Assembly (NCBI RefSeq): GCF_000092205.1
Contig: NC_014216.1
Coordinates: 2,299,742 to 2,363,741, forward strand
DNA: 64,000 bases
Reading direction: 5' to 3'
Source: Desulfurivibrio alkaliphilus AHT 2
Lineage (GTDB): Bacteria > Desulfobacterota > Desulfobulbia > Desulfobulbales > Desulfurivibrionaceae
Positions 6,823 through 8,971 of the stretch are shown piece after piece. The notes under the pieces were generated by a model. It was given only the letters and a program-made list of their open reading frames with translations, had not been told where the DNA came from and did not search any database. The first letter of the stretch is position 1. Each line of letters opens with the position of its first letter. Made by a program: the position numbers and the translations under genes.

Positions 6823-7515
6823 ATGCAAGACATCAAGGAAACCGCTCAGGAAGTATTTTACGCCGTACTGCCGATTACGGCGGTGGTGCTGGTCCTGCAG
6901 TTCACCCTGATCTGGCTCCCTTTGGCCGACTTTTTACAGTTTATGGTCGGCCTGGTGATGGTCAGCACCGGGCTGACCCTGTTTCTGTGGGGGGTGCAGG
7001 TGGCCATGCTGCCCATTGGCGAGATGATCGGCTCCTCTTTGCCCCGGCTGGGAAAAAGCTGGCTGGTGGTTTTCTTCGGTCTGCTGCTGGGTTTTGCCGC
7101 CACAGTGGCAGAGCCCGATGTCCGGGTGCTGGCCATGCAGGTAGACCAGGTGTCAGGTGGTGATATCTCTCAAAATATCCTGATTTATACCGTGGCCGCC
7201 GGGGTGGCGTTTTTTGTGGGGCTGGCCATGCTGCGCATCATCCTCAGTATCCCGATTACCTACCTGCTGGTTACCGGTTACGCTTTAGTGTTCCTGCTGG
7301 CCGCCTTCACCCCCGCCCACTTCGTCCCGGTTTCCTTCGACGCCGGTGGGGTGACCACCGGCCCCATGACCGTGCCCTTTATTTTGGCCCTGGGGGTCGG
7401 GGTGGCGTCGGTGCTGGGAGGCAAGACCGCCTCCGCCGACGGTTTCGGGCTAGTGGCCCTGGCCTCCATCGGCCCGATTCTGGCGGTTATGCTGCTGGGT
7501 ATTTTTTACAACTAG
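6823..7515 (+). CDS. DUF1538 integral membrane protein (first of pair)
   Basis: A 230-aa polytopic membrane protein with about six or seven hydrophobic segments. Two conserved loops define the DUF1538 type: GFAATVAEPDVRVLAMQV at residues about 90-107, and FDAGGVTTGPMTVPFI at about 172-187. The second looks like a re-entrant, glycine-rich substrate or gate region. A second DUF1538 gene starts 26 bases later and a double PII gene overlaps that one, so the three are one operon. DUF1538 proteins have no established substrate. The linked PII suggests a transporter or channel gated by a nitrogen/carbon-type signal, by inference. Its ATG has only a weak purine stretch upstream. Confidence 0.8.
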   Translation: MQDIKETAQEVFYAVLPITAVVLVLQFTLIWLPLADFLQFMVGLVMVSTGLTLFLWGVQVAMLPIGEMIGSSLPRLGKSWLVVFFGLLLGFAATVAEPDVRVLAMQVDQVSGGDISQNILIYTVAAGVAFFVGLAMLRIILSIPITYLLVTGYALVFLLAAFTPAHFVPVSFDAGGVTTGPMTVPFILALGVGVASVLGGKTASADGFGLVALASIGPILAVMLLGIFYN

Positions 7516-7541
7516 CTAATCCCCCAAGGTGAGATCGCGGC

Positions 7542-8270
7542 GTGGAAATTAAAATATTTGCTGGATTCGGCCATATCTTGCTGGAGGTGGGGTTTGCCCT
7601 GTTACCCCTGCTGGGCTTTTTTCTTTTTTTCCAAATTTTCATTTTACGTCTGCCCTGGCCCCAGTTATTAAACATCCTGAAAGGGCTGGTGCCGACCTTT
7701 CTGGGGCTGGCGCTTTTTCTGCAGGGGGTTAAAGTAGGATTTTTCCCCGTGGGCTCCGAAATGGGGGCCATCCTGGCCGGGATGCACCACAACTGGCTGC
7801 TGATACCCATCGGTTTTGTGCTGGGCTTTGTCGCCACCTTCGCCGAGCCGGCGGTGCGGATCCTCAACCTGGAAGTGGAAAAGACCTCCAGCGGCTCGAT
7901 TCCGCAGAGCATTATGCTTTACACCTTGTCTCTGGGGGTGGGTCTTTCCATCGCCATCTCCATGGCCCGGATGCTGCTGGGGATTCCCCTGTGGTATCTC
8001 ATTATTCCCGGCTACCTGCTGGCCATGCTGCTGATGCGTTACTCCAGCAAAACCTTTACCTCCATCGCCTTTGACTCGGGAGGGGTGGCCACCGGGCCCA
8101 TGACCGTAACCTTTATCATGGCCGTTTCCGTTGGCGCCGCCGGGGTTATGGAGGGGCGCAATCCGCTGCTGGACGGCTTCGGAATGATCACCCTGGTCGC
8201 CTTGGCCCCCATTCTGGCCGTTTTGATTCTGGGCCTGCTGTTCAACCGCCGTCGGAGGGAACAGGCATGA
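7542..8270 (+). CDS. DUF1538 integral membrane protein (second of pair)
   Basis: A 242-aa membrane protein starting at GTG with AAGGTGAG upstream. It is homologous to the preceding gene and repeats its two signature loops, GFVATFAEPAVRILNLEVEK and FDSGGVATGPMTVTFI. The two probably form a heteromeric complex, since each family unit looks like half of a transporter; in some genomes DUF1538 units are reported to be fused. Several long hydrophobic segments alternate with short basic loops, and the C-terminus is cytoplasmic-looking (NRRRREQA). Its stop overlaps the ATG of the PII gene by four bases (ATGA), showing translational coupling and supporting a functional PII-transporter pair. Confidence 0.8.
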   Translation: MEIKIFAGFGHILLEVGFALLPLLGFFLFFQIFILRLPWPQLLNILKGLVPTFLGLALFLQGVKVGFFPVGSEMGAILAGMHHNWLLIPIGFVLGFVATFAEPAVRILNLEVEKTSSGSIPQSIMLYTLSLGVGLSIAISMARMLLGIPLWYLIIPGYLLAMLLMRYSSKTFTSIAFDSGGVATGPMTVTFIMAVSVGAAGVMEGRNPLLDGFGMITLVALAPILAVLILGLLFNRRRREQA

Positions 8271-8971
8271 ACCATATTTCATGTTATAAGCTGTTGATAA
8301 CCGTGGTTAGAAAAGGCCGGGCCAAAACCATCGTGAAGGCCTCCAAGGAGGCGGGAGCTGAAGGGGGCACCACCTTCATTGGCAAAGGCATCGGCATTTA
8401 CGAAAAAAAATTTTGGGGTATTCCGGTAAATCAGGATAAAGAGATAGTTTTCACCCTTTTTCCGGAAAAAATAATCGACCCTCTGTTCAACGCGGTGACG
8501 GAAGCGGGCCGACTTGAAGAAACCGGCCAGGGTATTGCTTTGGTCATCGACGTAACCAACCTGGCCGGTATTGCTCATTTCTGTGATCTGGACGCCAAAA
8601 AGAGGCACAACATGCAACAGGCAAGCGGTTTTGAACTGATCGTAACCGTAGTCAACAAAGGCAACTCCGAGGCGGTGGTCTCGGCCAGCAAACGGGCCGG
8701 GGCCGAAGGGGGTACCATCCTTTACGGCCGCGGCACCGGCATTCACGAAAAGGAAACCCTGTTTTCCATTCCCATTGAGCCGGAAAAAGAGGTAGTGCTG
8801 ACCTTAATCGCGGCCGACAAAACCGAAGCGGTACTGCAGGCCATAAGGCAGGATACCGGCCTGGACGAGCCCGGCCGAGGCATCGCCTTTGTGTTGCCGG
8901 TGGACAAAACCACCGGCATCAAGCGCCTGGAAGCGGAAGCCAAAAGCGGTGGCGCTGTTTTTTCTTCCTGA
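8267..8971 (+). CDS. Double-domain PII-like regulatory protein
   Basis: A 234-aa protein made of two tandem PII-type domains (residues about 5-105 and 115-222), whereas GlnB/GlnK are single domains of about 112 residues. Each half keeps the fold pattern: a first strand (CYKLLITVVRKGRAKTIV, FELIVTVVNKGNSEAVV), the AGAEGGT turn and a GKGIGIYEKK or GRGTGIHEKE T-loop region. The T-loops are shorter than in GlnB and the usual uridylylated tyrosine context is not visible, so control is probably by ligand binding alone. It overlaps the DUF1538 gene by four bases. By analogy with GlnK-AmtB it may plug or gate the DUF1538 pair; this is inference. Confidence 0.8.
   Translation: MNHISCYKLLITVVRKGRAKTIVKASKEAGAEGGTTFIGKGIGIYEKKFWGIPVNQDKEIVFTLFPEKIIDPLFNAVTEAGRLEETGQGIALVIDVTNLAGIAHFCDLDAKKRHNMQQASGFELIVTVVNKGNSEAVVSASKRAGAEGGTILYGRGTGIHEKETLFSIPIEPEKEVVLTLIAADKTEAVLQAIRQDTGLDEPGRGIAFVLPVDKTTGIKRLEAEAKSGGAVFSS

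What the first reader, a model, noticed from the sequence alone, without database searches (positions are those of the whole stretch)
6823..8971. Two DUF1538 membrane proteins plus a double PII protein in one operon
The PII gene overlaps the second DUF1538 gene by four bases and has two PII domains with short T-loops. A PII-gated transporter of unknown substrate is the simplest reading, an analogue of GlnK-AmtB.
Basis: partly seen in the sequence, partly recalled or inferred. Interest (0 to 1): 0.55.

Follow-up and report, generated by a model that had tools for sequence, protein, structure and literature searches.

The report
DUF1538 transporter with PII regulator
Two mirror-image membrane proteins, probably halves of a sodium or potassium antiporter, sit next to a gene for a PII-type sensor protein, and almost every relative examined in bacteria and archaea keeps the same pairing, so the sensor probably switches the transporter.

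Summary
In detail: two DUF1538 genes (6823-7515, 7542-8270) and a gene with two PII domains (8267-8971, ATGA overlap). It is no local oddity: a PII gene lies directly downstream of DUF1538 in 156 of 164 loci examined from several bacterial groups, archaea and plasmids. Of the eight others, four stop at contig ends, three are DUF1538 fragments, one is an intact exception. No other gene recurs beside them. DUF1538 is not wholly uncharacterised: distant relatives UmpAB act as a Na+(Li+,K+)/H+ antiporter. New here: (i) first and second DUF1538 proteins carry opposite K+R bias, while eleven single-copy genes average near zero, the signature of a dual-topology ancestor; (ii) modules carry one, two or three PII domains; (iii) these PIIs have short T-loops, no Tyr51 and mostly lack the Lys90, Arg101 and Arg103 equivalents, so classical ATP/2-oxoglutarate sensing is not assured. 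Best reading: PII docks on and gates a cation/H+ antiporter. Physical interaction, ligand and this branch's substrate are untested. The GlnK-AmtB analogy is plausible, but the transporter looks like an antiparallel two-fold unit rather than a trimer.

The parts
6823..7515 (+). first DUF1538 protein (230 aa), K+R bias +5 (N-terminus predicted in the cytosol)
   Evidence: Pfam PF07556 262.7 bits; charge bias; falls in the 'first' clade
7108..7116 (+). Ala-Glu-Pro motif of the first DUF1538 protein
   Evidence: invariant in A1; the equivalent lies at a helix break in the model of a fused homologue
7339..7365 (+). Asp-Ala-Gly-Gly-Val-Thr-Thr-Gly-Pro motif of the first DUF1538 protein
   Evidence: Asp and Gly-Gly invariant in A1; in the model of a fused homologue the motif runs into the second helix break
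7542..8270 (+). second DUF1538 protein (242 aa, GTG start after AAGGTGA), K+R bias -5 (opposite topology)
   Evidence: Pfam PF07556 254.6 bits
7842..7850 (+). Ala-Glu-Pro motif of the second DUF1538 protein
8073..8099 (+). Asp-Ser-Gly-Gly-Val-Ala-Thr-Gly-Pro motif of the second DUF1538 protein
8267..8971 (+). double PII-like protein (234 aa), start overlaps the preceding stop (ATGA)
   Evidence: Pfam PF00543 42.7 bits; model pLDDT 85.3; Foldseek to solved PII chains
8285..8590 (+). first PII domain (about residues 7-108), the less typical of the two
8630..8944 (+). second PII domain (about residues 122-226), carries the GRGTGIHE...PEKE short T-loop

Best explanation
The three genes are a self-contained transport module. 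The two DUF1538 proteins (seven membrane segments each) insert in opposite orientations and form one antiparallel transport unit, most likely a Na+ or K+/H+ antiporter of the UmpAB kind, with the conserved Glu (AEP) and Asp (DxGG), at or near broken helices, as likely ion/proton sites. The double PII protein is its dedicated cytoplasmic regulator: it senses a small molecule at its domain interfaces and docks through its short T-loops on the cytoplasmic face, most likely inhibiting the antiporter. Shown: gene content, near-universal pairing, PII fold, inverted charge bias, loss of classical ligand residues. Inferred: ion selectivity, that PII binds the transporter, the sign of control, and that the ligand is a nucleotide or other metabolite.
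For: PII directly downstream in 156 of 164 loci, including 7 of 7 plasmid loci fetched (of 9 plasmid records with a match; the other two are second records of the same species). No other gene family recurs in the flanks: the best is in 8 of 120 loci. DUF1538 and PII distances correlate over 159 pairs (Mantel r 0.61, best of 999 permutations 0.105). UmpAB is reported as a Na+(Li+,K+)/H+ antiporter and heterodimer (PMC5484666, abstract, section 5 and passages). Charge bias: first +4.8/+7.4, second -5.4/-6.5, single genes +0.2. AEP lies at a helix break and DxGG runs into one in both halves of a model with pLDDT 86.9. Precedents for PII or PII-like control of transporters: AmtB-GlnK, SbtA-SbtB (PMC10710835, passages).
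Against: No direct test of binding. Adjacency and distance correlation also fit co-inherited genes whose products do not touch. UmpAB worked in E. coli from clones without a cognate PII, so PII is not an essential subunit. The window pair is far below the UmpA/UmpB cut-offs. Classical ligand residues are lost, so the PII could be inactive as a sensor. One intact locus (L076) has no PII. No DUF1538-PII fusion was found. Foldseek found no convincing solved fold. No known riboswitch points to an ion.
Confidence: 0.55

Rival explanations
1. PII-gated transporter, but not a monovalent cation antiporter: the DUF1538 pair of this branch moves another solute, and UmpAB's antiport is one member's property.
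For: Window proteins score 130-134 bits (UmpA) and 106-131 bits (UmpB) against cut-offs of 490/500. The UmpAB-like pairs placed in the tree come from a separate duplication (100/99 support). Carriers include many gut anaerobes as well as halophiles (record titles). Weak fold hints point at several transporter types, best Z 4.8.
Against: Invariant acidic residues at or near helix breaks are shared across the family. The closest named relatives include Virgibacillus, Lentibacillus, Planococcus and Oceanobacillus, known to me as halophiles or salt-tolerant (recalled).
Confidence: 0.25
2. The PII does not act on the transporter but reports on ion or energy state to other proteins; the operon only co-expresses them.
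For: No contact evidence. The genome holds two further PII-like orphans with similar short T-loops and no DUF1538 beside them.
Against: Pairing is nearly universal over large distances and on plasmids; in the genomes examined that have two intact modules each module has its own PII (L190; L191; L192; L155/L156; L157/L158; L188/L189).
Confidence: 0.12
3. PII is an activator or assembly factor rather than an inhibitor, for example holding the two-fold unit or several units together.
For: One to three PII domains occur per module; an added docking domain could help to hold a two-fold unit.
Against: UmpAB was active in E. coli from clones holding only umpA and umpB.
Confidence: 0.08

Closest known systems
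UmpAB of Halomonas zhaodongensis (DUF1538 Na+(Li+,K+)/H+ antiporter, PMC5484666)
   Same: Paired DUF1538 membrane proteins, seven segments each, heterodimer; co-expression needed for the full effect.
   Different: No PII is mentioned in the paper's main text. Window proteins score far below the UmpA and UmpB cut-offs. Closer, UmpAB-like pairs in Desulfobacterota (L040, L044, L046: 314-365 bits to their own subunit model, still below the cut-offs) belong to another duplication than the window pair; they and L041 are followed by one PII domain, the window by two.
GlnK-AmtB
   Same: A PII gene in an operon with a membrane transporter; likely docking by T-loop.
   Different: The transporter is of another family; T-loop shorter and without Tyr51; Lys90, Arg101, Arg103 replaced; PII domains duplicated or triplicated; transporter apparently an antiparallel two-fold unit, whereas AmtB is a trimer (PMC10710835).
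SbtB-SbtA
   Same: A PII family protein regulating a Na+-linked transporter; shows that PII need not sense nitrogen.
   Different: SbtA is trimeric and, as far as I recall, unrelated to DUF1538 (not tested); the R-loop of SbtB was not looked for.
Dual-topology families (SMR, CrcB/Fluc, DUF606)
   Same: Single gene with K+R bias near zero, gene pairs with opposite bias, and fused pairs, as reviewed in PMC3962082 (passages).
   Different: Seven segments per unit and a PII gene beside each stage of the series.

Membership tests
DUF1538 (PF07556) | Pfam score over the curated cut-off over the whole domain | tested here: met
   262.7 and 254.6 bits, cut-off 22.6
UmpAB equivalogs (NF041627/NF041628) | NCBIfam score over the equivalog cut-off | tested here: not met
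   First protein 134.1 (UmpA) and 131 (UmpB); second 129.6 and 106.4; cut-offs 490 and 500
UmpAB equivalogs (NF041627/NF041628) | Na+(Li+,K+)/H+ antiport | not testable with these tools
   needs a transport assay
PII (PF00543) | Pfam score over the cut-off and PII fold | tested here: met
   42.7 bits, cut-off 25; Foldseek to solved PII chains, for example 3bzq (TMt 0.68)
Classical GlnB/GlnK PII | Tyr51 in a long T-loop | tested here: not met
   Tyr51 column is a gap in 98% of 183 last/only domains and 99% of 79 first-of-two domains, and in both window domains
Classical GlnB/GlnK PII | Side chains contacting ATP/2-oxoglutarate (Gln39, Lys58, Lys90, Arg101, Arg103; residues from PMC8395244) | tested here: not met
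   Lys90 to Ile (74-87%), Arg101 to Gly (75-91%), Arg103 variable, Gln39 mostly Gly or Ala (alignment there uncertain by two residues); only Lys/Arg at 58 is kept (95-98%) (residue roles)
GlnK-AmtB type pair | PII gene in operon with its transporter | tested here: met
   4-base overlap; 156 of 164 loci
GlnK-AmtB type pair | Physical docking of T-loops on the transporter | not testable with these tools
   no complex prediction on offer; no fusion found
Dual-topology / antiparallel families | Opposite K+R bias in pairs, near zero in single genes | tested here: met
   first +4.77 (71 split) and +7.44 (73 fused), second -5.42 and -6.48, single +0.18 (11, range -3 to 2); a cruder count gives single +2.55, and 38 of 288 paired halves are within 3 of zero
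Dual-topology / antiparallel families | Both orientations found in the membrane | not testable with these tools
   needs topology reporters

The most novel reading that the evidence does not exclude
DUF1538-PII is a widespread, independent class of PII-gated ion transporter whose transport unit is an antiparallel dimer that evolved from a dual-topology single gene. A three-fold PII therefore meets a two-fold target, and the family answers the mismatch by duplicating or triplicating PII domains in one chain, up to a single-chain PII trimer. [quoted passage not shown]
Probability: 0.35. Interest if true: 0.78.

Novelty: new variant of a known kind. Interest (0 to 1): 0.64.

Why it matters
PII-controlled transport is textbook for ammonium and, in cyanobacteria, for nitrate, urea and bicarbonate. 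[quoted passage not shown] A PII-linked module with a predicted antiparallel two-fold transporter, found in gut Clostridia, Enterococcus, Bacillaceae, methanogens and on plasmids, would extend PII control to monovalent-cation and pH homeostasis and give a common set of genes of unknown purpose ('DUF1538' plus 'P-II family nitrogen regulator') a testable role. The single-gene, gene-pair and fused forms also make DUF1538 a fresh case of dual-topology evolution with seven segments.

Tried and rejected
Solved folds: Foldseek gave no match at E 0.001 or better for the fused DUF1538 model (best E 7e-3, TM 0.14). VIA-align's best rows were Z 4.8 or less (Pho90, NaCT, EAAT1, NCX_Mj among them), too weak to name a fold; this does not show a new fold. 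A sequence search of solved structures with the second DUF1538 protein found nothing up to E 1.

Riboswitches: in 36 loci scanned no known riboswitch lies on the DUF1538 strand just upstream of DUF1538. Nine matches in all: a T-box in L094 is about 340 bases upstream but on the other strand; the others (FMN, lysine, fluoride, cobalamin, two c-di-GMP-I, two tRNAs) are further away or downstream. So no Na+, K+ or c-di-AMP signal supports the substrate.

Substrate from neighbours: no gene recurs in more than 8 of 120 loci. Natural DUF1538-PII fusions: none among the loci scanned. Viral contigs: no relative of the PII protein, in a search that finds close relatives only.

Halomonas umpAB itself: I could not reach a genome of that group; whether a PII gene follows it is open. 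A census of Pseudomonadota was not possible because no centre genome was at hand; only two alphaproteobacterial plasmid loci stand for that phylum.

Contact-level coevolution was considered and left out: about 159 pairs and no control gene could not separate contact from co-inheritance.

Results against my reading: 38 of 288 paired halves have an absolute charge bias of 3 or less, so a single value does not prove dual topology; the cruder all-K/R count puts single genes at +2.55; the second halves of three insert-bearing loci (L042, L045, L049) show positive loop bias, probably because inserts break the alignment. L076 keeps intact DUF1538 genes without PII. Two loci counted as hits also carry a stray DUF1538 fragment without PII (L193 56 aa, L200 100 aa). 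In the stricter recount by domain distance L095 drops out (75 of 80 in its set) because unknown residues hide its first PII domain; its PII ORF starts 85 bases after DUF1538.

Rows dropped: L095 from the PII alignment before structure prediction, because it holds unknown residues; 44 of 52 double-PII proteins plus the window's went into that alignment; 36 of 41 fused DUF1538 proteins of suitable length went into A2; incomplete DUF1538 domains were left out; 106 of 299 halves were used for the tree. Of genomes with exactly one DUF1538 match, four (G334, G414, G425, G589) and one (G625) were not counted as single-gene cases, because the match is a fragment, at a contig edge or below the cut-off; one-match genomes (G268, G275, G296) were fragments or contig ends.

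Full report
What is there. Three genes on the + strand: DUF1538 (6823-7515), DUF1538 (7542-8270) and a protein with two PII domains (8267-8971) whose ATG overlaps the preceding stop by four bases. Pfam confirms all three. Upstream lie a PilZ-like ORF (below Pfam's cut-off) and an HD-domain gene, downstream a pterin-binding methyltransferase-like gene.

Pairing. I collected DUF1538 loci in five sets: 17 from a phylum sample around the window's genome (17 of 297 genomes positive; regions); 80 named loci from a genome scan that kept the best 80 of at least 586 matches; 20 regions from the phyla of a Balneolaceae and a Methanomicrobiales genome (8 of 198 and 32 of 196 genomes positive; 7 and 13 regions); 40 regions, 38 from the phylum of a Clostridiaceae genome (101 of 299 positive), picked to include weakly scoring and single-copy cases, and two more archaeal ones; and 7 plasmid loci from 9 plasmid records with a match. 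A PII gene follows directly on the same strand in 14 of 17, 76 of 80, 20 of 20, 39 of 40 and 7 of 7: 156 of 164. A recount by distance between domains gives the same sets except L095, whose first PII domain is hidden by unknown residues. Of the eight others, L050, L065, L102 and L109 stop at contig ends, L052, L053 and L180 are DUF1538 fragments, and L076 (Metabacillus lacus) is intact and lacks PII. L043 is counted as a hit although its PII is cut by the contig end; L051 is counted although its DUF1538 gene is broken. These sets are not a random sample, but they include distant members and archaea. Among 1002 flanking ORFs of 120 loci no family occurs in more than 8 loci.

Architecture. One DUF1538 gene with one PII domain (11 intact loci); two genes or a fusion with one or two PII domains, the two as one protein or two genes; and insert-bearing fusions with about three PII domains in one protein of 369-381 aa: the HMM count gives three for L045 and L143, and L042 and L049 look alike with weaker first or third stretches. 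No DUF1538-PII fusion was seen. In the genomes examined with two intact modules, each module has its own PII (L190; L191; L192; L155/L156; L157/L158; L188/L189).

Transporter. A fused homologue (L116, Papillibacter; 36-sequence alignment) was modelled with mean pLDDT 86.9. I read each half as seven spans, two of them broken. The first break falls at the invariant AEP motif (E97, E350); the second falls at the end of the DxGG motif, whose invariant Asp (D173, D427) lies about seven residues before it. Loop charges largely alternate as an inverted repeat requires, with weaker contrast in the second half. Scored over 299 halves, the K+R bias is +4.77 (71 first, split genes), +7.44 (73 first, fused), -5.42 (71 second, split), -6.48 (73 second, fused) and +0.18 (11 single genes, range -3 to 2). 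The window pair scores +5 and -5. The review PMC3962082 tabulates -2 to +1 for dual-topology proteins and 6-7 in absolute value for antiparallel partners. Caveats: 38 of 288 paired halves also have absolute values of 3 or less, a cruder count gives +2.55 for single genes against +5.65/+9.08 and -6.72/-8.36, and three insert-bearing second halves are positive. In an unrooted tree of 106 halves the single genes fall, with 100/96 support, in a group with the UmpAB-like and triple-PII pairs, between the main 'first' and 'second' clades; UmpA-like and UmpB-like proteins of L040, L044 and L046 are sister groups (100/99), so pairs arose at least twice. This fits a dual-topology ancestor; it is an inference from charge and phylogeny, not a membrane experiment.

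Function. UmpAB of Halomonas zhaodongensis, a DUF1538 pair, confers salt and alkaline tolerance on E. coli KNabc when co-expressed and shows pH-dependent Na+(Li+,K+)/H+ antiport (PMC5484666: abstract, section 5 and passages). Papers apparently of the same group report antiport for several unrelated families (listing, passage; 'same group' is recalled), so I give the ion assignment moderate weight. The window pair is not an UmpAB equivalog by score. Closer UmpAB-like pairs in Desulfobacterota (L040, L044, L046: 314-365 bits to their own subunit model, also below the cut-offs of 490 and 500; L041 was not scored) are followed by one PII domain. Because UmpAB worked from clones without a PII, the PII is more likely a modulator than a subunit.

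Regulator. The double PII model (pLDDT 85.3) matches solved PII chains. Against the genome's own canonical PII, 183 last/only and 79 first-of-two domains lack the Tyr51 column (98-99%), replace Lys90 by Ile (74-87%) and Arg101 by Gly (75-91%), vary at Arg103, and keep Lys/Arg at the Lys58 position (95-98%) and the Gly87-x-Gly89 turn in most; Thr29 is kept in 93% of last/only but only 54% of first-of-two domains. From Thr29 to Lys58 most domains measure 23-24 residues against 29 in the canonical protein. Residue roles are from PMC8395244 (passages). The alignment near Gly37 is uncertain by two residues. So a pocket may remain, but classical Mg-ATP/2-oxoglutarate binding cannot be assumed.

What is known. 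Searches for 'DUF1538' (five papers), 'UmpAB' (nine papers, some unrelated) and 'PII' with 'DUF1538' (one paper, where 'PII' is part of a peptide motif) found no report of this pairing in the held open-access library; other literature was not searched, and of these papers I saw passages of PMC5484666, PMC12093952 and PMC7221264 and only listings of the rest. Genome annotation already labels the neighbours 'DUF1538 domain-containing protein' and 'P-II family nitrogen regulator', so the pairing is visible but, in these searches, undescribed. [quoted passage not shown]

Judgement. The kind (PII beside a transporter it probably gates) is known; the pairing with a dual-topology-derived antiporter family, its spread, and the one-to-three PII domain series make it a new variant. 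Contact, ligand, sign of control and ion remain to be tested. The oligomeric state of DUF1538 is also unknown: a trimer of antiparallel units would remove the symmetry mismatch.

Noticed in passing
L054:4040-4360 and L055:3889-4194 (same genome as the window): Two further single-domain PII-like proteins with similar short T-loop motifs and no DUF1538 beside them (the genome's only DUF1538 matches are the window's two); their partners are unknown.
   Followed up: partly
L046:7718-8185 (relatives in L041 and L044): A protein that looks like a CBS-domain pair recurs in three of the four UmpAB-like Desulfobacterota loci, in L046 just downstream of the PII gene; no domain search was run on it.
   Followed up: no
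L138, L139 (plasmids of Methylocystis rosea and Chelativorans sp. AA-79): The DUF1538-PII cassette sits on a mobilizable and a conjugative plasmid; the first DUF1538 gene of the Chelativorans copy is annotated at only 273 bases.
   Followed up: partly
L190, L191, L192: Two DUF1538-PII modules stand head to tail, each with its own PII gene.
   Followed up: partly
L136:6710-7381 and 7571-8230: Two double-PII genes follow one fused DUF1538 gene in Clostridium sp. MAG28.
   Followed up: no
window whole: The genome is one contig of 3,097,763 bases; by recalled size it may be the haloalkaliphile Desulfurivibrio alkaliphilus, which would suit a Na+/H+ antiporter, but this was not tested.
   Followed up: no
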